This document shows positions 1-37,627 of a stretch of DNA of 64,000 nucleotides, one piece after another. Source of the stretch: Fragilariopsis cylindrus CCMP1102. Taxonomy: Eukaryota > Bacillariophyta > Bacillariophyceae > Bacillariales > Bacillariaceae. Position 1 is the stretch's first letter, and every line of letters starts with the position of its first letter. Location of the stretch: NCBI GenBank assembly GCA_900095095.1, contig FMBT01000310.1, positions 186,001-250,000 on the forward strand. The letters are read 5' to 3'. The position numbers and the translations under genes are program-made. Under the pieces are notes generated by a model. That model did not search any database, was not told where the DNA came from, and saw only the letters and a program-made list of their open reading frames with translations.

Positions 1-1127
1 GGCGAAAGAGAAGGCCAGATAATACGGTTTTTCAAATGCAGTTTTTTGTTTTTTGTGCTTTTTTAAAGAGCTACGACGACTAACGTGAATTGTGAGTTGT
101 AATTAGTCACGTGCTCACGCGACGGCGAATTACTTCCTAGCCAATCGAAAGTTCAAATGTAATTGCCCAGCTTTACCGATTGGAGTGCGCACAACCTGTC
201 ATTTGTCTATTATATATGTGTGTACAGTATATGTCACACTTTATTTTCTCAACTGCCCACTACATCACACGACATGACATCTTCGCTGTCTCACATTTTA
301 AATAGAAATGAGAGGTTCTGCTTCTGAGTTATCCTTGCAAAAACATTTTGATGGTCATCATCTGTCAATGTTGTGCAAGAATGCGGCTGCTGCTTGCTAA
401 TACTATATTGCTGCTACTACTGTACTAAACAATTATACTACTTGTTTGTTGTTGTATTTCTCACAAAGCAGAATTCAATTGTATCAATCATGGATATATT
501 TAAAAACAGTACTAACATCCAGTATAAACCATACCAGAGTATCTGATGACAGACAAGATATGAAGTCAAGATGCAATGTAAGAAGTGGAGAAAGTGAGCG
601 TCATATTTAAAAAGAGTGGCTTGTTTGTAATAATATAGCATCTTCTCCTCTCATCATTATTAGGTTTAGTAATAGTGTAGTAATAGTAATAATAATAGTG
701 CATGCTAATATGTTACTATCTTGTGTACTAGATTACATTAGGTAGAAGCAATGTTTGGCATTATAGTTATAGTACATAATGTAACTATCTCTTAATAGGA
801 GTGTGGGTACGACATATTGTGTGTAAGTGGGCATCTATGGTGTACCAACTACAGATGGCTACATCTTGGTCACTACTAGGACCTAGAACAAACTTGATAG
901 ATAGAAAGTGTTGTATATTCATGGAGAGAAGGATGATGTATCTGGTTTGGGGTCTAAGATCTATATTTTGATGATTTTCGATCCAATGACAAATTTAGTG
1001 CGCATACACACATATATGTGTGTAAATGGAGAAATGTGGTGTACCAACTACAGATGGCTACATCTTGGTCAATACTAGGACCTAGGACAACCTTGATAGA
1101 TAGAATCAAAACATTCCGCCCATACCA
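1..1127. other. Gene-poor left edge with repeats
   Basis: No convincing coding frame is visible on either strand. The stretch is AT-rich and holds a dispersed direct repeat (839-906 and 1038-1105) and an 18-bp perfect palindrome, acacacatatatgtgtgt, near 1004-1022. It lies downstream of the AIM24-like gene, whose stop is at 1128-1130, so it probably contains that gene's 3' untranslated region plus intergenic DNA of an unseen neighbour. Confidence 0.5.
839..1105. repeat. Dispersed direct repeat, two 68-bp copies
   Basis: Positions 839-906 and 1038-1105 are near-identical, both starting ggtgtaccaactacagatgg and ending gatagatagaa, with only a few substitutions. They are 199 bp apart. The spacer contains an 18-bp perfect palindrome of alternating AC/TG and AT. 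No coding frame is shared by the copies. Origin unknown: a local duplication or the remnant of a longer repeat family. Confidence 0.8.
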
Positions 1128-3228
1128 CTATTCCACCATACCACCCTCTCCTACTCGATTTCCACCAGCGCTTGGTGCAGCTTGAACAATCCTATCTGCC
1201 AATCTGCTCAACGGCAATGACTGCATCCATACCGTTCCTGTACCCTGTAGGACTGCCAAAAATATTCCTTCGCCTCCAAAGAACATTGATTTTAATCCCG
1301 GAACCATCGTAATATCAAAGCTTATTCCTTGCGTTGTAAACGCTACAAGACAACCAGTATCTAGACGAATACGTTCGTTGTTTAATTCCCGCTTAATGAT
1401 AGTACCCCCAGCATGTATAAAGGCCATTCCGTCTCCTTCTAATTTTTCCAATATAAAACCTTCACCACCAAATAATCCACTACCGATCTTTCTGTTGAAG
1501 CCATGGAAAGCTTGGTACCTAATGCAGCACATAGAAACGCATCCCGTTCTGTTTCGTACAGAAGCAATACAAACAATTATCTTATTAGAAAAGACGCGTT
1601 TACGAAGGAATATCTGATGTTTTGTTTTTCAAATACACTTGTTTTTACAAGTATACCATTTTTTACTTACGACAAGTAATAGCTTGACCAGGTTGGTTAG
1701 CAAGATTGACTGGTACAATACTTCCTGGATAGGGGGCAGCAAAAGCAACACGAGACTTTTGTTGACTTTCGTTAGTAAAATGTGTAATAAATAAGGATTC
1801 TCCAGACATGAGCCTACCACCAGCTGCCATGAGCTCTACAATACATCATCGAATAGTGAACAGAAACAAATTGATGATGACGAAGCGTAAACAAACAAGT
1901 AGAAAATCGGGGAAGGAAAAGTTTTAGATACGCTTAGATTTGTAGATGAAATCGGAGAAGGCAGGATGAAAAGATATATTTCGGTATCTTATTCTTTGGA
2001 TTTTTTTCGTTTCTTACTTTTGAAGAATCCTGTTTTTGCTTCAGACCCATCACCAAATTTTGACTCAAATTTTATTCCATCTTCCATAAACATCATTGCT
2101 CCTGCCTCACCAATCACAGTCTCATTCGGATCGAGTTCAATCTCGACCAATTGCATCCTATTTTTCGATGAATATATATAAAGTAAAGGGTATCACATGA
2201 CATGACATACATCGAAACAAAAAATAATCACGAGAGGATAATGTAAGCAATGGATGTTGTTCTAGTATTTTTTTTTTGAATTTCTGGTATTAGTATAGTT
2301 TACTGTCTCTGATTTCTTTTTTTGTAACTTACTCATATCCTTTAATTTCGTAATCGATTTTGTGACACTTCACTGGATTACCCTCGCTAATTAATCCACT
2401 GGTTGGTCCTTGGTGAAGACCAATTTTTGCAGGTTGAGCAACGGCGTGGACCATAGAAGGCTGCTGATCTTCGATTGTACGATGATTGTTATTGGAAGAA
2501 TATGATAACGATGACGATGCTACTGCTGAAGTGAATGGTACCACTGGCTGATGTTGTGTGGGTGGTGGTAAATCCAAGGACTGCGAAAAATTAGGAAGAA
2601 CAGATGACGACGTCGTTGCCCTCGCTGACGGTGTTGAAGAAGGTAGTTGTCCATAAACATTATTATTACTACTACTAGTACCAGTATTACTATTGATTGC
2701 AGTAGATTTTGGAGTTGATGCTGAAGCGGATGCTGAATAATTAGTAGTATTAGTTGTTGTTGTTACTGCTGATGTTGTAGCGGGGAGTGCCCCATAGACA
2801 CCGTTGTTGTTGCTATTGTTGGACGACGATGTTCCTAATGTCGTGGATTGACTTGCGTATCCAGAATTTGAGGTATTTGCGTACGGATTATAATCGGATG
2901 CTGATACTGCTACTTTGGAAGCCGAAGGGTTGCCATTAGTCGAAGATGAGGCGTACGGATTATAATCGGATGCTGGTACTGCTGCAGAAGTAGAAGCCGA
3001 AGGATTTCCGTAGACGTTACAATTGTTGCCATAGCTTGCTGGTGCTGGTGCTGTAGAAGTGGAAGGATTCCCGTAGACGTTATTGTTATTGTTACTATAA
3101 CCGGGAGACGAAGAACCGTAAGACGCAGTATTCGACGGCTGACCATATGCGGAAGTATTAGTGCTACTACCGCTTTGTTGCTTTGGCTGGCTTTTGTTAT
3201 TTCCTGTCTGCGTGACGTAAGATGCCAT
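1128..3228 (-). CDS. AIM24 / TIGR00266 family protein with long S/N/T-rich N-terminus
   Basis: This is a four-exon gene, complement(1128..1548, 1671..1835, 2018..2157, 2333..3228), with GT-AG junctions that keep frame. Exon 1 codes about 290 residues rich in Ser, Asn, Thr and Ala with NPYA and VYGNPS repeats. The AIM24 fold starts at YEIKGYE and continues through [75 protein letters not shown] and [15 protein letters not shown], the complete family core. AIM24 proteins are trimeric beta-sandwiches; the yeast member is mitochondrial and affects inner-membrane organisation, while bacterial members are uncharacterised. In exon 4, near 1499-1501, the frame moves by one base: upstream [15 protein letters not shown] and downstream [12 protein letters not shown] are both conserved but in different frames. 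One extra T would restore the consensus, so a sequencing error or a fresh mutation is likely. Predicted length is about 540 residues. The function of the N-terminal extension is unknown. Confidence 0.88.
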
Positions 3229-3733
3229 ATTTGGGTATACCGTATTTTCTCTGTATGCGAGCGAATAAATAGAAGATTCTGGTAGAGCGCTTAGAAATAC
3301 GACAATCTGCTATTTGTTTTGAATATGAGCAGAGATGCAAGATGCGAGATGCAACATGCAAGACAGTTGTGAGTTTTGTCGTTATCATTATTATCGTTGA
3401 CACATCGTTGTCGAACTTCTTGTATTCTTTACGGTACGGTACTTAGTACTGCTATTCACGTTACTATGATCATGAAACAATCGAGATTTAATCAATCATC
3501 CACGACCCAGTTTAACTCGTGCGCATCGTCGTCTGTCCTCCGGCGCACTCTAACAGGCCACCAACCAGATCATGGATTTCAGATTTGCTATTTCATTCGA
3601 TTTTGACTTGACTTTTTTAATCAGAATTCTTTGTACGGTAATATTGGTATCGGTATCAGTTTGCATCAGTCAAGAATTGGCTAACTCTTCATATTACAAG
3701 TAGATAGCAGAGAAAGACAAAAGAAAAAAGAAA
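3229..3733. promoter_or_regulatory. Divergent promoter gap between AIM24-like and Notchless genes
   Basis: 505 bp between two start codons pointing away from each other, so both promoters must lie here. It contains a GTAC-rich patch (acggtacggtacttagtact, about 3432-3452) of a kind seen in several other intergenic gaps of the window. No TATA box can be assigned with confidence. Confidence 0.45.
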
Positions 3734-5869
3734 ATGACATCATCACTTGCACCATCTGTTGGTAAGAATGGTGACAAACGTACCGGTGGAATCGCTTGGG
3801 CAGGTAGTTTGGTAGGGTCCGAGAATCCAAATAATCTCGGATATCGATATTCCAACCCGTTAAAACGGTATAAAAAAGCTGGTGAAAATGGTGATGATGG
3901 TGAAAATGATGGACCTGAATTCCCTTCCAATTTAGTTGTTCAGTTTCAAAACCGACAGGGTGACGAATTAGCAAATTCAATGGACATACCGACTCATTCG
4001 ACGATAGATGATTTACAAGCCCTAGTTCATTCTCTTATTGATGACGAGGACGAGGACGACGAAAAATCTAATAACAAATCAAAAGGCATTCCATATTCAT
4101 TTTATGCCAAAATTGAAAGGAAGAATGGAGTTGTAGATGAAATTGAAATTACTAATAGTCTATTAGATTTCTTGAAGGAATATAAAAACCTCGTCTCAAC
4201 TGAAGTTACTCTACAACTCACCTACCAACCGTTAGCCGTCTTTAAGGTCCGACCTGTCACACGATGTACAGCTACCATGCCTGGTCACACGGAGGCAATC
4301 CTTCACGTATCATATAGTCCTGATGGGCAACATTTGGCATCGGGTGGGGGTGATACTTCTGTAAGATTTTGGGACGTTAATACCTGTCTACCAAAAATGA
4401 CATGCAAACAACATAAGGATCATGTACTGTGTACCGCATGGAGTCCAGATGGACGTTACTTTGCTAGTGCTGATAAGCGTGGGACATTAATAATTTGGGA
4501 TCCACATCAAAAAAGAAAACGGGTGATTAAACAACAAAACGGAACGAAGTCAGAACCGACGGAACCAATTTGGATCAAATCACAGGCACATAAGCAATAT
4601 ATCACTGGACTTGCTTGGGAGCCACTTCATCTTAACCAAGGTCGGGGCGAACGTATCGTAACATCATCGAAGGATGGGTCATGTAAAATTTGGAACGTCC
4701 GGACGAAACAAGCTCTAATAGTAAGTTCTTTCTTGTATTGTTTTCTTTTTCAACTGTTGATGTTTCTTCTTCTAAAGAAAAGAAAGAAAATAAGAAATAA
4801 AATAAAAGAGAATGAAGAAATTATATCGTGTATTTGGCATTCGTGCCTATACAGTAACGTCGAGATACTCGAAGAGATGGACGGAGTCAAATTCCATCCT
4901 TCTGGGTCGCAAAATTGTCTATGACAGATCAGCTTAAGATATCGGACTCTTTTATTATACTTTTTTAATGCGCTTTTTTTAAATATCTCTACTTCGTTCT
5001 TCCATTCTCACGACGACGTTTCCATCATTCCTTCCGTTTCTTTACCCAATTTTGATTTAATCTTTTTTAATTACCCGCAGACTTTATCTGGCCACACAGA
5101 TTCCATCGAGGCTGTGAAGTGGGGCGGTGAAGGATTTTTGTATACCGCCAGTCGTGATCGTACAATCAAGGTGTGGACAGCGAAGGAGGGAGACGTTCTT
5201 GGAAAAATGGTACGGACCCTAAAAGGACATGCTCATAGAATCAACTGTTTGGCGTTGTCGACTGATTATGTCTGTCGGACGGGCCCATACGAATTTGCAC
5301 CCTCAGGGCGACCTCAACGGATCTTTAGTGAGGAAAGTAACGATGAAGATGCTGTTCAAAAGGCAAAATACCAAGCCGCTGTGGAACGTTACCAAGCCTT
5401 TCGAGATCAACAAGAAGGAGACGGTCAGAAGGAAAGACTCGTATCTGGTAGTGATGATTACACCCTATTTTTGTGGCATCCAACCTCGGAGAAACAACCC
5501 GTCAAGCGTTTGGTTGGTCATCAACAGGCTGTTAATCATATTCAATTTAGTCCAGATGGTCGTTACTTTGCCAGTGCCTCCTTTGATAAGAAGGTTAAGT
5601 TATGGAATGGATATTCGGGAGAATTTTTGAAAACGTTGACGGGGCACGTAGGAGCTGTGTACCAGGTAGCCTGGTCGTCTGATGGGAGATACTTAGTCAG
5701 TGCTAGTAAGGATAGTACCGCTAAGTTATGGGCGATCCCATCGGGTAAAACTGCGAAGGCCACATTACCAGGTCATGCCGATGAGGTTTATGCTTTAGAT
5801 TGGAGTCCCAACGGAGCCAGTGTAGCAACTGGATCGAAAGATCGAACAATCAAGGTATGGAAGCATTAA
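3734..5869 (+). CDS. NLE1: Notchless homolog, WD40 ribosome-biogenesis factor
   Basis: Two exons, join(3734..4720, 5081..5869), code 591 residues. The donor gtaagt at 4721 and acceptor cag at 5078-5080 keep phase 0 (QALI then TLSGHTDSIEAVKW). The N-terminal NLE domain (about residues 57-175, FPSNLVVQFQNRQGDELANS) is followed by eight WD40 repeats with clear GH...WD cores, such as GHTEAILHVSYSPDG, GHADEVYALDWSPNG and a final DRTIKVW. Known role of the family (Rsa4/NLE1): it binds the pre-60S ribosomal particle, and its NLE/MIDO-binding domain is pulled by the AAA-ATPase Rea1/Midasin during nucleolar-to-nucleoplasmic maturation. An acidic insert (DDEDEDDEKSNNKS) in the NLE domain and a long loop between WD repeats are lineage features. 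The gene looks intact and essential. It converges with the next gene, 266 bp away. Confidence 0.96.
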
Positions 5870-30504: not shown

Positions 30505-32338
30505 CTAGTTTGGTTCGATATCCAACCTTTTGATCTGACGATCAATAAACACTGTCTGTGTCTGAGAGTTGTATTGTGCAAAAAAAGGCCTCGGTAAGTC
30601 TTCGCAGTACTTCCTCATCTTATTCTTGGCATCTGATAAACTATCAGCAAGGAAATACAACGGCTGATAAGTTGTGATCGGGAATTCTTGTAACGCTGCT
30701 CGCTTAGGATCCCACTCCATAATCATAGGCTTTTCGGAATTCTCGTTTTCTCCACAAGCATACTCAAGTTCTCCAAAACTTGACAGCAGGCCAGCCCCGT
30801 ACGCTGTCATTTTATCCTTACCCTTCATGGGATCGTACTCTTTGCAAAGCCCGAACTCAACGGTAAACCAATAACATCGTGCAAGTTTGTCTATATCTTC
30901 ATCACTCGCCCCGAGGCTAGCCAGTCCGATCTCTTGACTAAAATCACAAAAATCTGTATCAGCAAACATCGGAGCATGTCCAAGAAGTTCATGCACAACG
31001 TCGGGTTCGGGAGTATATAAAGGCTTGGAATGATGCTGATTCACGTAACAATCAGAGCAGCGAGATTGAGATTTACAGGCAGGTGAAAGAAAGAATGAGA
31101 AAAACAAACATACAATGAAAGGACAACATAATATACACGCTCTATTACTTACTCTAATGTATTGAGTGCAAAAGAAAGTACGATGGGCAAGGCCATTGAG
31201 AAAATCCCTAGAAGTTAATAATCCAGCGACAGGTCTAAGGTGAAAATTTGTCGTGGATTCAAGGAAAATTGAAATATCCTTTTGTTGTGGAATAGTTGTT
31301 CGAGTGTAGTTACAGTGCTCCTTCATAAGCTCTAATGAACGGAGATATGGAGTGCATGCAAACTTTTCCCAAAGCGGCTCCATTTGATCCCACACAGATG
31401 TCCAGCAATGAATCTCGTCCTCTGTGTATTTAATTTCAGCAATTGGTTTATTCCATGCATGATTTAAGGCAAAGTCTGCCAACTCTTGTCGACGTTTACG
31501 ATAATTTTGATCGTAAAATCCAGGATGATCTGCCTCTAGGTCACTACCTGCATCTAAAGTACGATTTGCGATCATATCAAGCTCAGAGATATGACGTGGG
31601 AACCAATTTACTTTTATCCAAGCAAAACATCATGAATATTATTTAGTTTGAAAAATAGCATCAAGAAAGAAATACAGAAATTTTCAATTCTCGTAAGTAA
31701 GTATAAATTAGATGTTCCAGCATAGATGAAAATAATAGTTATATGGATAGTAGTTAGTTTCCACCTTACGTACCTTCTTTCTCGCCAAGAATCAACAACT
31801 TTTCTACGCCATATTCTTCCAAACTCGCAAGTAAGTTCTCGAGTCTTTCATCTTTCTCGTCCTCATCAGAGCCATTCGTCCTCTCAACATCAACGAAGAA
31901 GTCGAATTTGCCAAATTTGATGGACGTGATTCAATCCTTCTTATATTCACATCAAACTTCCAAAAGAATCGCAAAACGTCATGTAAGATTCCCACGCGGT
32001 TTGGCAGTTCCATTAGCAGTGACGTTAGATGCTTTTCTTCGTCTTCGGAGATGTTCGATGCATTATTTTTTTCTTTGTGATCCATCATCATCCTATCGAA
32101 ACCATTATTCGTTGGAATTGATTGCTCCGACCTTATCAAATTTCTTCTCATAATCGAATTGTTGCGAGGGGCTATTATCGTCGCTGACTAGAGTCTGGGT
32201 TTTTGGCATGCTAGTAGAGCTGCATCTGTAATAGTGTGATGTCGCTCCAAGCAAGCTCCTTGATAATACTGGACGTAATAAACGGAATGTTGTAGCCGGT
32301 CGTAGTAACATTGTCGTCGAGAGTCGAGGGTAATGCAT
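30505..32338 (-). CDS. PAH: Aromatic amino acid hydroxylase (phenylalanine 4-hydroxylase type)
   Basis: Three exons, complement(30505..31035, 31153..31610, 31774..32338), about 517 residues. An Arg-rich presequence ([20 protein letters not shown]) suggests mitochondrial import. An ACT-like regulatory domain follows: [40 protein letters not shown]. The catalytic domain covers [64 protein letters not shown] (two iron-binding His) and [12 protein letters not shown] (iron-binding Glu). This is the Fe(II)/tetrahydropterin hydroxylase fold; PAH converts Phe to Tyr. The ACT region is read one base out of frame between roughly 32110-32150 and 31920: two compensating one-base differences, the second restored by one extra C (RPSKFGKF). 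The 117-bp second intron is a multiple of three without stops. Confidence 0.92.
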
Positions 32339-33895: not shown

Positions 33896-35731
33896 CTATA
33901 GTGTGCTTGTACTGCATCCAACTGTACTCATTTGTTCACGTTGAAATCCTTCAGGATGATTCTTGCAGATCCGTTCAATGTGACTCTTTATACCGGACTC
34001 TGGAGGGAACCAGACATCCAATGACTCCTGTACGTTCCTGTGTTTGCTTGAAAGTAACTTTTGATATATCTTTGACCATCCTTGATCGCAAAGAATCCAT
34101 TTTGGATTTAATGGAAAAGTAAACCCCTCATCGATCTTATCATTTAGAATCTTTTGAAGACCAGCAACGTCAACGTATTCCCATTTCAGACCATTTTGGT
34201 CTGGATTATGTCCATCATATATGATTAAAAATTCTTCATCGAGTTCCTGTGGAAAATAATAGTTAAAAGATTCACTCCCATGTCGTACAGCACCATTATT
34301 CGAAAGTCTCTTGGTCAGAGTTTTGATTAAACCGATTGATTTGGGGTCTCCAAAGCCAAATTGAGGAATATTAGGATGAACACCAGCGTTTGATTGCTCT
34401 TTAAGAATTTCAAACCAACGGCTTGTCCAAGGTTGACTACAAGGCTTATCATGAATTTTCTCAATTGACGATACCATATACTTAAGGTATTCAATCTGGT
34501 CTGAAGGCAAGGGCGAATTGTAACTAACTCCGCGTGTACCAACCAAAAGATTATCAAAGTCACTGACAACAGGTAGAACTTTTCCATTCTCTTCGTATGC
34601 CATAAGTAATTCAAATGGATTCAAATTGTCGCTCGTGATTGCATTTTGGATCAATACTGCCTTTGGTTTTCCGAAAACAGTTGGTGCCTGTAGTGCGGTT
34701 ATGTTCATGTCTTGGAAAGCAGGCTGACTTGGTCTTCCACAATCATATTGAGAACCTATACGTCTGCTTATATCCTGTCGGTAGATGAACGTTTCCCATA
34801 ACAGACGCACAGGGATTTCAAGTCCGTGTATCTTAGGAAGGTAGTCATCAATATATTCAATGGATGGATCTTCTGAATCAAGATACATGCCATCCAATGC
34901 TTTTTTCCGATTTTTATCGGTAGATCGATTGTCGTTTAGGATCTTTTTACTTTCTTCGACTACTTCCATCATCATCATCATAACGTTCTCTAATTTATTG
35001 GCGCAATTATCCCTTGCAGCACCTCCGTCAGCACCTATAAAAAATAACCTGATTTTACCAAGCTTAGGCAGGGGACGAATCATTTTCTTGTGTTTATTCT
35101 TAGATATCTGCAAAAACGGCACGTATCCGGATAATTTCCCTCGTTTTGCTGACTTGCCCTTAATATCAAGCCCTTTACCGACCCCCTCTCCTTTCATCAT
35201 GCGTTTTATTGCATCTCGTGAGGTCGGACGCCAAACAGAAAATAATGATGAGCGACACACATAACGTAGCAAAGGCCTGACCTTTTCGACTTCTACTTTA
35301 TACTGTTCAATATCAGCAGCTCCGACTTGTGAAACGTCTAGAAAATACCTATAAATTTGAAATCTGGGGTCACTACGATAAAATTTCGAAGCCCAGGTTT
35401 TGGCTCGAGACAGCTGGATGTCTTCGTTGGGTCTGTATGGCCGACTTGGCGAATAGAGACTTACAAGTTTCTTTCGCTCAAATAATTTGACTCGTTCCGC
35501 CCATTCCTGATCGTCTGATACAACCCCAAGTTCTAGTACATGCGATTCCAGGTCATCATCAGTGTCTTTCTCTTCTTCCCAGAACCAGCGTTGATTCACA
35601 GGAGTGAAACGATATATTCGCAATTCAATTCCTTTAAATTTGTTCGTGGGTCTTCGGATGCTACAACTAACACCTTCATTAAATGTGAGTTTAGACACGT
35701 CTTGAAAAAGATTAAACTCTTCCTGAAACAA
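33896..35731 (-). CDS. Edema factor/CyaA/ExoY-type nucleotidyl-cyclase-like domain protein
   Basis: Open frame of 611 codons. The first 42 residues (EEFNLFQDVSKLTFNEG ... GIELRIYRF) are the end of a DEP domain that starts in the neighbouring frame. Three signature regions of the anthrax edema factor / CyaA / ExoY cyclase family (PF03497) then occur in order: residues about 184-206 (GKGLDIKGKS, then GYVPF), about 385-395 (GKVLPVVSDFDNLLVG, a D-x-D pair that binds metal in the toxins) and about 480-503 (AVRHGSESFNYYFPQELDEE). An insert of about 180 residues separates the first two. Whether it makes cyclic nucleotides is unknown. The DEP array and flanking genes are ordinary host genes, so I infer an old bacterial domain domesticated for signalling. 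As sequenced, the DEP-cyclase unit is broken at about one place. Confidence 0.8.
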   Translation of the reverse strand: MFQEEFNLFQDVSKLTFNEGVSCSIRRPTNKFKGIELRIYRFTPVNQRWFWEEEKDTDDDLESHVLELGVVSDDQEWAERVKLFERKKLVSLYSPSRPYRPNEDIQLSRAKTWASKFYRSDPRFQIYRYFLDVSQVGAADIEQYKVEVEKVRPLLRYVCRSSLFSVWRPTSRDAIKRMMKGEGVGKGLDIKGKSAKRGKLSGYVPFLQISKNKHKKMIRPLPKLGKIRLFFIGADGGAARDNCANKLENVMMMMMEVVEESKKILNDNRSTDKNRKKALDGMYLDSEDPSIEYIDDYLPKIHGLEIPVRLLWETFIYRQDISRRIGSQYDCGRPSQPAFQDMNITALQAPTVFGKPKAVLIQNAITSDNLNPFELLMAYEENGKVLPVVSDFDNLLVGTRGVSYNSPLPSDQIEYLKYMVSSIEKIHDKPCSQPWTSRWFEILKEQSNAGVHPNIPQFGFGDPKSIGLIKTLTKRLSNNGAVRHGSESFNYYFPQELDEEFLIIYDGHNPDQNGLKWEYVDVAGLQKILNDKIDEGFTFPLNPKWILCDQGWSKIYQKLLSSKHRNVQESLDVWFPPESGIKSHIERICKNHPEGFQREQMSTVGCSTSTL

Positions 35732-35758
35732 TCTTCCGATATGTATTGCATTCGCTCT

Positions 35759-37627
35759 TTAAGATGCGATCTCAGATTCGATCAGATAAGAAACGATGTC
35801 TTTGCCAGAAAAGGTGCCTCTATATAACCGAAATCCAACCCGATTGTCCTTCACTTTGATCTCTTGCTCAAATTGTTTAGCAGTTGCGTGTAACTCTACT
35901 CTATTCCGCCCTAACAAGCTGCCCTTATGGATATGTATCGGACCAGGAGAAAATCGGTAAAAAAGATGGTCATCTTCGAAGTCATGTTCGTTCTCATTTG
36001 ATACGTGATGAAATAGACCGAAGGTTTTCATTACGTCTCGTCCGATTTTTACTGCCGCCACCCTTGTTTTTGCTATCTTTGACGCCAAAAAGAAATCGAC
36101 TGCGTGTGTTCCGACAAAACAGTCTCTATATATTTTAAAATGCCATACACGGTCCTTCAACGTAATACCTGAACGAAATTTATCAGCAATTTCCTTTAAA
36201 TCGTTGTCACTATCGATAGATGATATCGATGTAGAAACAGACAGCTGATGAATTGAGTCTGTAACAGAAAACCCGAAAAGTACGTCATCGTCCGAGAATG
36301 GTCTCAAATCGGTCCCATTTCGTTTTTTGTTAACATCCTCGAAGAGGTTAAGTCGACTATTTAGTGTTCTACCAAGAATTACAGCTTCCTTTCTAGTTTG
36401 TGCTAGCGACGAATCGACAAGGAAAGATACAGCGTCAGCTGCAACAAAGCATTTCGTATACGTTTTCCTTCCTCTTTTCATATCTTTTACGACTACCCCG
36501 TTTCGAAATATTTCACCAATAGCTTCGAGATTCGACGATTTTAGCATGGATTTTGTTGCTATGTCGGTAATTAAACGATCATCTACTGGAGAGAAGCGAT
36601 AGAACAAGCGATCGTCACGGAAGTCGTGGTCATTCGTAACGTGATGAAAAAGACCAAGTTCTGTGACCATTTTTCTCCCAAGATCGACAGCGGCGACTCT
36701 CGAATTTGTAATCCCATGCTGGATCATGAAATCAACGGCTTGACTACCAACGAAAGTATATGGATAGGATTTCATATGATATCGATTCGTTCCGACATTA
36801 ACACCACTCTCAAATATCTTAGCCTGTTCTTCAATCGATAATTCCCCCTTTGATGATTTACCCTCATGGTATACCCTCATTTCATCATTGGTGAATCGAT
36901 AGAATAAATAATCATCTTTTAATACATGATTTCCTGTTGCGTGTTGAAATAAATTTAATTCGGATGATATTCGTCGTCCAAGGTCCACTGCATCTATTCT
37001 ACTTTTGACGTATCCGTGACTAACAAGAAAATCAATTGCATCACTACCTACAAAACAGTCTTGGTACGTCTTCCAGTGATATGTACGATCTTTAATTTCC
37101 ACACCTCGTTCTAACTCTTTAGCGATATCAATCAATTCGTAATTTTCGTCACTATCATATTTATTAGATGACGATGAAGATGACGATGACGATGATGTGG
37201 TAGATAAAGCACCTGAATCGTCATATGCGTGCAAATCTTGGTGCAAAGCTAATGTAGCATCAAGGTCATCGAGGAACGGTAAGAATCGTTTTTGATGTGG
37301 AACAAAACGATAGAATAAGTGTGCATCTTTAAAGACATGATCACGATGGACATGTTCAAATAAATTGAATTCATTCATCAATCTTAAACCCAACAGAACC
37401 GCATTTTCTCTTGACGAAGCCATATTTGATTCAACCATAAATGTAACAGCATCTTTCCCAATAAAACATTTTTTATACCTTCTTGTGCGATAATATTCAT
37501 CTTTCACTGGTATCGTTTCAAAAAGTTTGATTTTTCCTATACTGATATTCCCATGCTGATGAACTGCTTGCCCGTTCGGCGTCGACGACGACGACGAAGC
37601 AATATCAGAATCGATTGATTGATACAT
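35759..37627 (-). CDS. DEP-domain array protein
   Basis: 622 codons from ATG at 37627. Five complete DEP domains (about residues 28-112, 162-247, 262-345, 365-455 and 470-558) and part of a sixth are present. Each has the pattern CF(V/I)G..AV.F(L/M)V, then R..AV.LGR, then LF.HV...H.F.D..LFYRF. DEP domains (Dishevelled, Egl-10, Pleckstrin) bind phosphoinositides and G-protein-coupled receptors and bring signalling proteins to membranes. Linkers are short and acidic or Ser-rich. The sixth domain is continued by the start of the adjacent cyclase-like frame, so the two are probably one signalling protein: a DEP array followed by an edema-factor-type domain. Tandem DEP arrays of this length are unusual. 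Confidence 0.88.
   Translation of the reverse strand: MYQSIDSDIASSSSSTPNGQAVHQHGNISIGKIKLFETIPVKDEYYRTRRYKKCFIGKDAVTFMVESNMASSRENAVLLGLRLMNEFNLFEHVHRDHVFKDAHLFYRFVPHQKRFLPFLDDLDATLALHQDLHAYDDSGALSTTSSSSSSSSSSNKYDSDENYELIDIAKELERGVEIKDRTYHWKTYQDCFVGSDAIDFLVSHGYVKSRIDAVDLGRRISSELNLFQHATGNHVLKDDYLFYRFTNDEMRVYHEGKSSKGELSIEEQAKIFESGVNVGTNRYHMKSYPYTFVGSQAVDFMIQHGITNSRVAAVDLGRKMVTELGLFHHVTNDHDFRDDRLFYRFSPVDDRLITDIATKSMLKSSNLEAIGEIFRNGVVVKDMKRGRKTYTKCFVAADAVSFLVDSSLAQTRKEAVILGRTLNSRLNLFEDVNKKRNGTDLRPFSDDDVLFGFSVTDSIHQLSVSTSISSIDSDNDLKEIADKFRSGITLKDRVWHFKIYRDCFVGTHAVDFFLASKIAKTRVAAVKIGRDVMKTFGLFHHVSNENEHDFEDDHLFYRFSPGPIHIHKGSLLGRNRVELHATAKQFEQEIKVKDNRVGFRLYRGTFSGKDIVSYLIESEIAS

What the first reader, a model, noticed from the sequence alone, without database searches (positions are those of the whole stretch)
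33896..37627. DEP-domain array next to an edema-factor/CyaA-type cyclase domain: a possible new signalling system
Seen: five full DEP domains and a split sixth on one side, and on the other a domain with all three family regions of anthrax edema factor / CyaA / ExoY in the right order, including GKGL..-GKS with GYVPF, a D-x-D block, and HGSE..N..FP. Known: in bacteria these regions form the calmodulin- or actin-activated nucleotidyl cyclase active site; DEP domains recruit signalling proteins to membranes and GPCRs. Inferred: a eukaryotic alga has put this domain under DEP control, possibly for membrane-linked cyclic-nucleotide or related signalling, after an old transfer from bacteria. Some active-site positions appear to differ from the toxins, so it could also be a binding or pseudoenzyme domain. 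The unit shows about one break as sequenced.
Basis: partly seen in the sequence, partly recalled or inferred. Interest (0 to 1): 0.88.

Follow-up and report, generated by a model that had tools for sequence, protein, structure and literature searches.

The report
Diatom toxin-like cyclase with DEP array
A diatom gene joins a row of DEP domains (recruitment modules) to an enzyme domain with the fold and active-site residues of the cyclic-nucleotide-making bacterial toxins edema factor, CyaA and ExoY, which suggests that diatoms use this enzyme class for their own signalling; the copy in this assembly is interrupted by one stop codon.

The parts
35759..37627 (-). ORF1: five DEP domains and the N-terminal half of a sixth, 622 aa, ATG start, ends at the in-frame TAA
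   Evidence: Pfam DEP 307.1 bits, six stretches
37304..37528 (-). DEP domain 1 (ORF1 residues 34-108)
36893..37126 (-). DEP domain 2 (168-245)
   Evidence: 107 bits
36593..36823 (-). DEP domain 3 (269-345)
   Evidence: 115 bits; best Pfam DEP stretch 275-345
36308..36514 (-). DEP domain 4 (372-440), the weakest of the five full matches
   Evidence: 67 bits; pI 10.0
35951..36190 (-). DEP domain 5 (480-559)
   Evidence: 112 bits
35762..35881 (-). DEP domain 6, first half (583-622)
   Evidence: 29 bits; aligned apart to P0001
35759..35761 (-). in-frame TAA stop inside DEP6; stands at the place of one residue in P0001 and P0042
35606..35758 (-). DEP domain 6, second half, same frame
   Evidence: end judged by eye from the alignment to P0001
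33932..35419 (-). class II nucleotidyl-cyclase-like domain (ORF2 residues about 105-600)
35150..35179 (-). lysine loop (K186, K191, K193; spacing 0/+5/+7)
   Evidence: invariant in 123 of 123 rows and in 194 of 194 rows that span it; spacing as in ExoY
34553..34561 (-). metal-binding D391-x-D393
   Evidence: 196 of 196 rows; two invariant aspartates in ExoY
34262..34282 (-). switch-B motif with H484 and N490 (spacing +6)
   Evidence: 196 of 196 rows; H753/N759 of Vn-ExoY

Best explanation
The gene belongs to a large diatom family of endogenous class II nucleotidyl cyclases, in a subfamily where an N-terminal array of DEP domains (six here, two to five matches in relatives) is fused to the catalytic domain. 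Most likely the domain turns a nucleoside triphosphate into a 3',5'-cyclic nucleotide by the two-metal mechanism described for ExoY: the lysines hold the triphosphate, Asp391/Asp393 and His484 the metals, His484 also the base, Asn490 the ribose. The DEP array places the enzyme at membranes or receptor complexes and gates it. Shown here: fold homology, conserved active site, the fusion in relatives, diatom membership. Inferred: activity, product, location, DEP gating. The copy in this assembly carries one in-frame stop in DEP6, so as sequenced it would yield only the DEP part; it is either a recent nonsense allele or an assembly error.
Against: No activity is shown. The window protein scores below Pfam's cut-off (17.9 against 25 bits); of 53 family members scanned only 30 match PF03497.21 at E <= 0.01, and the intact sister P0001 does not. 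Foldseek TM-scores by query are low (0.18-0.24 for the 17 matches). The bacterial relatives need actin or calmodulin, and no cofactor is identified here. The genome also has class III cyclases (34 exon-level matches), so a class II enzyme is not needed for cyclic nucleotides. In 11 of the 22 rows of the DEP clade no DEP was detected; five begin inside the core, the rest may lack it. The DEP label needs six changes on the tree, at least three forced by starred branches. None of the listed transcript rows lies in the DEP clade, so its expression is not shown.
Confidence: 0.66

Rival explanations
1. Pseudoenzyme or nucleotide-binding scaffold: the domain keeps the fold but no longer makes cyclic nucleotides and acts as an NTP-sensing module of a DEP scaffold.
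For: Sub-threshold Pfam score; weak global superposition (TM 0.18-0.24); the genome has class III cyclases to do the chemistry.
Against: All seven active-site positions are invariant in the 194 rows that span them, although these are best-scoring rows. In ExoY, mutating the first Lys cost at least about 23,000-fold, the switch-B His about 13,000-fold, the second conserved Lys 250- or 26-fold, the Lys at the His351 place only 14- or 12-fold (PMC10553838).
Confidence: 0.13
2. An algal secreted or injected toxin, as suggested for algal edema-factor-like folds in a 2023 structure-clustering paper.
For: Homology to bacterial toxins; the suggestion in PMC10584675 (passage). Two of 193 listed family proteins (P0015, P0113) have a hydrophobic stretch at the N terminus, so export of some members is possible.
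Against: DEP domains are intracellular recruitment modules (general knowledge, no call). Neither ORF has a membrane-like stretch (largest 19-residue hydropathy 1.15 and 0.82), and only 3 of 193 family proteins have one over 1.9. The third, P0193, reads as cyclase, membrane helix, LRR. No signal-peptide program was run.
Confidence: 0.06
3. This particular locus is a pseudogene (true nonsense allele), whatever the family does.
For: The in-frame TAA; no second copy in the assembly to contradict it (neighbour gene); the family has short pieces with stops inside elsewhere (C505 and C442) and one split allele-like copy (C517 against C303); ORF2's first ATG is codon 178 and would miss the start of the fold.
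Against: 620 open codons after the stop and 37 of 38 invariant columns kept, so little decay; the end branch is moderately longer than the sister's (0.35 against 0.23).
Confidence: 0.45
4. The two ORFs are separate genes that happen to be neighbours.
For: A stop codon lies between them.
Against: The halves of DEP6 lie on either side, one residue apart when aligned apart to P0001 or P0042; 10 relatives are single proteins.
Confidence: 0.02

Closest known systems
ExoY (Pseudomonas aeruginosa; Vibrio MARTX ExoY modules), actin-activated class II nucleotidyl cyclases
   Different: Eukaryotic and encoded by the organism itself; DEP array; longer span from the lysine loop to DxD (205 residues against 137 in Vn-ExoY by the numbering); 11-15% identity over the aligned parts; cofactor unknown
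Anthrax edema factor (calmodulin-activated adenylyl cyclase)
   Same: Best sequence and structure matches
CyaA (Bordetella)
   Different: His/Lys difference as for edema factor; no calmodulin-binding part shown here; CyaA's secretion part (recalled) not seen
Algal 'Anthrax_toxA-like' structural cluster (Barrio-Hernandez et al. 2023, PMC10584675)
   Same: Algal proteins with partial edema-factor fold; probably the same diatom family (inference)
   Different: The passages seen report partial fold matches and raise the possibility of toxin use; they mention no DEP fusion and no active-site check
Receptor-type guanylate cyclases of the diatom Seminavis robusta (PMC6688387; class III by my reading)
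   Same: Diatom cyclic-nucleotide signalling (passages)
   Different: Unrelated catalytic fold (class III, general knowledge)

Membership tests
Class II nucleotidyl cyclase fold (edema factor/CyaA/ExoY) | Catalytic-domain fold | tested here: met
Class II nucleotidyl cyclase fold (edema factor/CyaA/ExoY) | Two phosphate-binding lysines, spacing 7 | tested here: met
   K186/K193, 194 of 194 spanning rows; K528/K535 and K81/K88 in ExoYs; assigned by order and spacing
Class II nucleotidyl cyclase fold (edema factor/CyaA/ExoY) | Metal-binding D-x-D | tested here: met
   D391/D393, 196 of 196; D665/D667; assigned by order and spacing
Class II nucleotidyl cyclase fold (edema factor/CyaA/ExoY) | Switch-B His and Asn, spacing 6 | tested here: met
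   H484/N490, 196 of 196; H753/N759; assigned by order and spacing
Class II nucleotidyl cyclase fold (edema factor/CyaA/ExoY) | Score over the curated cut-off of Pfam PF03497.21 (a database threshold, not a biological trait) | tested here: not met
   17.9 against 25 bits. The newer PF03497.23 is assigned, precomputed, to all 120 listed relatives, P0001 (62% identical) among them. Hence filed as a distant diatom branch of the fold, not as a member of the toxin families
Class II nucleotidyl cyclase fold (edema factor/CyaA/ExoY) | Cyclic-nucleotide synthesis | not testable with these tools
   no assay
Edema factor / CyaA / ExoY toxins | Activation by calmodulin or actin | not testable with these tools
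   needs biochemistry
Edema factor / CyaA / ExoY toxins | Secretion or injection into another cell | tested here: inconclusive
   no membrane-like stretch in either ORF; no signal-peptide program run; other export routes not tested
Edema factor | C-terminal helical domain | tested here: inconclusive
   best alignments end near residue 655 of edema factor, one weaker row runs to 744; ORF2 ends 16 residues after the shared core
DEP domain (PF00610) | Pfam score over cut-off | tested here: met
   307.1 against 32.7 bits, six stretches
Class III cyclase (PF00211) | Pfam match in ORF2 | tested here: not met
   no PF00211 match at E up to 10; HMMER filters drop very weak matches

The most novel reading that the evidence does not exclude
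Class II nucleotidyl cyclases, treated as bacterial toxins in the papers consulted, are a large native signalling family in diatoms with modular control: a DEP array in one subfamily, a conserved C-terminal tail in most of the others, and in at least one protein a membrane helix with LRRs that looks like a receptor cyclase. The bacterial toxins and the diatom enzymes would then be two uses of one enzyme class, and diatom actin or calmodulin could be its everyday regulator.
Probability: 0.55. Interest if true: 0.87.

Novelty: new variant of a known kind. Interest (0 to 1): 0.72.

Why it matters
If the family is active, diatoms own a second route to cyclic nucleotides beside their class III cyclases, built on an enzyme class that the passages I saw treat as weapons against eukaryotes (apart from the 2023 note on algal folds). 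It would give a natural model of how a eukaryote restrains such an enzyme and a test case for how toxin enzymes and cellular enzymes are related. It would also explain the toxin-like algal structures reported in 2023 without assuming algal toxins.

Tried and rejected
Separate genes: rejected. Intron across the break: judged unlikely, because the halves of DEP6, aligned apart, flank exactly one residue of P0001 and of P0042. Of the other eight relatives tried, four (P0005, P0007, P0008, P0011) fit this once the one unaligned residue of the N piece is counted; P0020 leaves six residues where eight would be expected; in three (P0002, P0006, P0013) the C piece aligned to another repeat and says nothing.

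Own-genome PF03497 search found nothing, but it missed the window's own domain too and its control genomes rang nowhere, so it is uninformative. Bacterial relatives: genome contigs scanned twice; 30 and 126 stretches matched a pattern, none was confirmed; the exact-pattern step would miss distant ones, so absence is not shown. Viral contigs: 20 stretches, none confirmed, one of 73, L021, a phage-type 1632-aa protein with a local lysine motif in which I saw, reading, no D-x-D or HG..N block like the family's; taken as chance. Viral fold library: nothing at E <= 0.001. NCBIfam: one sub-threshold match, 13.4 against 400 bits, ignored. Calmodulin binding by the C-terminal tail of non-DEP members was considered; no test was run, so it is not claimed.

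Family reach beyond diatoms: one search scored only the 7,991 candidates sharing most words and listed the best 120 of 674; one search scored 7,990 and listed all 75 hits. Members outside diatoms are not excluded. Literature: ten searches of open-licence PMC papers; four lists were cut (20 of 115, 25 of 78, 20 of 1,491, 10 of 36 shown). 'Not found in print' means not seen in those lists.

Full report
WHAT IS THERE. One in-frame TAA (35761-35759) follows. The same frame then stays open for 620 codons and carries the rest of DEP6 and a domain of about 500 residues.

THE ACTIVE SITE. PMC10553838 (passages seen) names the ExoY residues: K528/K533/K535, D665/D667, H753, N759 in Vibrio nigripulchritudo, with Lys (K533, K86) at the place of edema factor's His351. 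Mutating K528 or its counterpart cost at least about 23,000-fold, H753 about 13,000-fold, K535 250- or 26-fold, K533 14- or 12-fold. The window protein has K186/K191/K193, D391/D393, H484 and N490: the same order and spacings (0/+5/+7, 0/+2, 0/+6). The one-to-one assignment rests on order, spacing and matched ranges; I did not print an alignment to a toxin. In an alignment of 123 rows (window, 120 homologs, two own-genome paralogs) all seven are invariant. With the 73 further proteins, 194 of 196 rows have all seven; the other two (P0122, P0144) lack the lysine loop and keep the other four. The rows are best-scoring ones, so a bias to conserved members is possible.

THE FUSION. Ten of 120 listed homologs carry DEP and PF03497 in one protein: P0001, P0002, P0005, P0006, P0007, P0008, P0011, P0013, P0020, P0042. 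They have two to five DEP matches each, partial ones counted. On a tree of 123 rows the 11 DEP-bearing rows, the window's included, fall in one clade of 22 rows (SH-aLRT 99, quick tree). The other 11 rows show no DEP; P0063, P0066, P0071, P0077 and P0088 begin inside the core, the others may have lost it or be cut. The tree needs six changes of the label, at least three forced by starred branches, so a single origin without losses is not shown. The listing says nothing on transcripts for the DEP clade; transcript rows (mmetsp labels) occur elsewhere in the family.

OTHER ARCHITECTURES. A regular expression finds a conserved C-terminal tail motif in 69 of the 101 rows outside the DEP clade and in 1 of the 21 other rows of the clade (P0020); the window protein lacks it. 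A looser expression gives 72 of 101 and 2 of 21 (P0003, P0020). P0193 (1655 aa) has the cyclase core, a strong hydrophobic stretch at 1143 and LRRs after it, which looks like a receptor cyclase; PF03497 on it is precomputed and was not found again by the local Pfam at E <= 0.01, while its aligned active-site columns are complete.

THE ORGANISM. The genome has 67.9 Mb in 818 contigs. The neighbouring mitochondrial carrier is 98% identical to an unnamed ENA protein, 76-82% to rows labelled Pseudo-nitzschia or Nitzschia inconspicua and 67% to Nitzschia sp. Nitz4. Every family row whose listing shows an organism is a diatom: Cylindrotheca, Corethron pennatum, Pseudictyota dubia, Attheya septentrionalis, Asterionellopsis, Chaetoceros (read from a cut label), Ditylum, a Bacillariaceae MAG, Pseudo-nitzschia pungens and multistriata, Nitzschia, Seminavis. 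So this is very likely a diatom near Bacillariaceae, and the family is widespread in diatoms. Most rows show no name.

THE BREAK. The N piece and C piece of DEP6, aligned apart, lie one residue from each other on P0001 and P0042; four more relatives fit, one does not quite, three are uninformative. An intron is thus unlikely. The part after the stop keeps 37 of 38 columns invariant in the 122 other rows; P0001 treated the same way also keeps 37 of 38. ORF2's first ATG is codon 178 and would miss the start of the fold. The locus has no second copy among the matches in the assembly (neighbour gene), so no allele can be compared. Broken copies occur elsewhere: C517 has two ORFs where C303 (96.8% identical over 2633 aligned columns) has one, and C505 and C442 hold short matches with a stop inside. 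Whether the stop is real remains open. Intact relatives exist.

MECHANISM. Shown: fold, conserved active site, fusion in relatives, diatom membership. Inferred: it makes a cyclic nucleotide by the two-metal route; the substrate cannot be told. DEP domains are known to recruit proteins to membranes and receptors (general knowledge, no call), so an array plausibly sets place and avidity; gating is a guess. The genome has matches for receivers and erasers: cNMP-binding domain 56 (50 over the cut-off) and phosphodiesterase 16. It also has class III cyclases, 34 matches, so class II enzymes would act beside these. All three are exon-level counts and include near-identical contig pairs.

KNOWN AND NEW. 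PMC10584675 (passages seen) reports that several algae proteins partly match edema-factor structures and raises the possibility of similar toxin systems. PMC9223806 (passages seen) treats the class as bacterial; 'diatom' and 'alga' do not occur in its held text. PMC3727952 (passages) reports adenylate cyclase in diatoms; 'anthrax' and PF03497 do not occur in it. PMC6688387 (passages) reports receptor-type guanylate cyclases in a diatom. Ten full-text searches, some with cut lists, showed me no title or abstract start that reports a DEP fusion or a complete active site in algae. I therefore rate it a new variant of a known enzyme class: a native, DEP-linked eukaryotic branch. By the membership rule I do not file it as a member of the toxin families; cofactor activation and delivery are untested, and one database threshold was not met.

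Noticed in passing
protein P0193, residues about 1143-1655: A 1655-aa relative combines the cyclase core with a hydrophobic membrane-like stretch and C-terminal LRRs, like a receptor cyclase of class II.
   Followed up: partly
L002 (C517) and L003 (C303): Two copies of a paralog, 96.8% identical over 2633 aligned columns; the C303 copy is one open frame, the C517 copy is split into two ORFs.
   Followed up: partly
L009 (C505) and L011 (C442): Short family pieces with a TAG inside the match, suggesting gene birth and death in the family.
   Followed up: no
L021 (IMG/VR contig), protein at 127..5025: A phage-type 1632-aa protein carries a motif resembling the cyclase lysine loop, but no other part of the domain was seen by eye.
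   Followed up: partly
30505-31575, minus strand: Aromatic amino acid hydroxylase (Biopterin_H, 408.7 bits, two stretches) whose ORF seems to read through an in-frame intron, judged from a hydrophobic insert.
   Followed up: no
alignment: The conserved C-terminal tail of non-DEP family members is nearly absent from the DEP clade (1 or 2 of 21 against 69 or 72 of 101), as if DEP array and tail were alternative regulatory parts.
   Followed up: partly
proteins P0015 and P0113: Two family members have a hydrophobic stretch at the N terminus, possibly an anchor or signal peptide.
   Followed up: no
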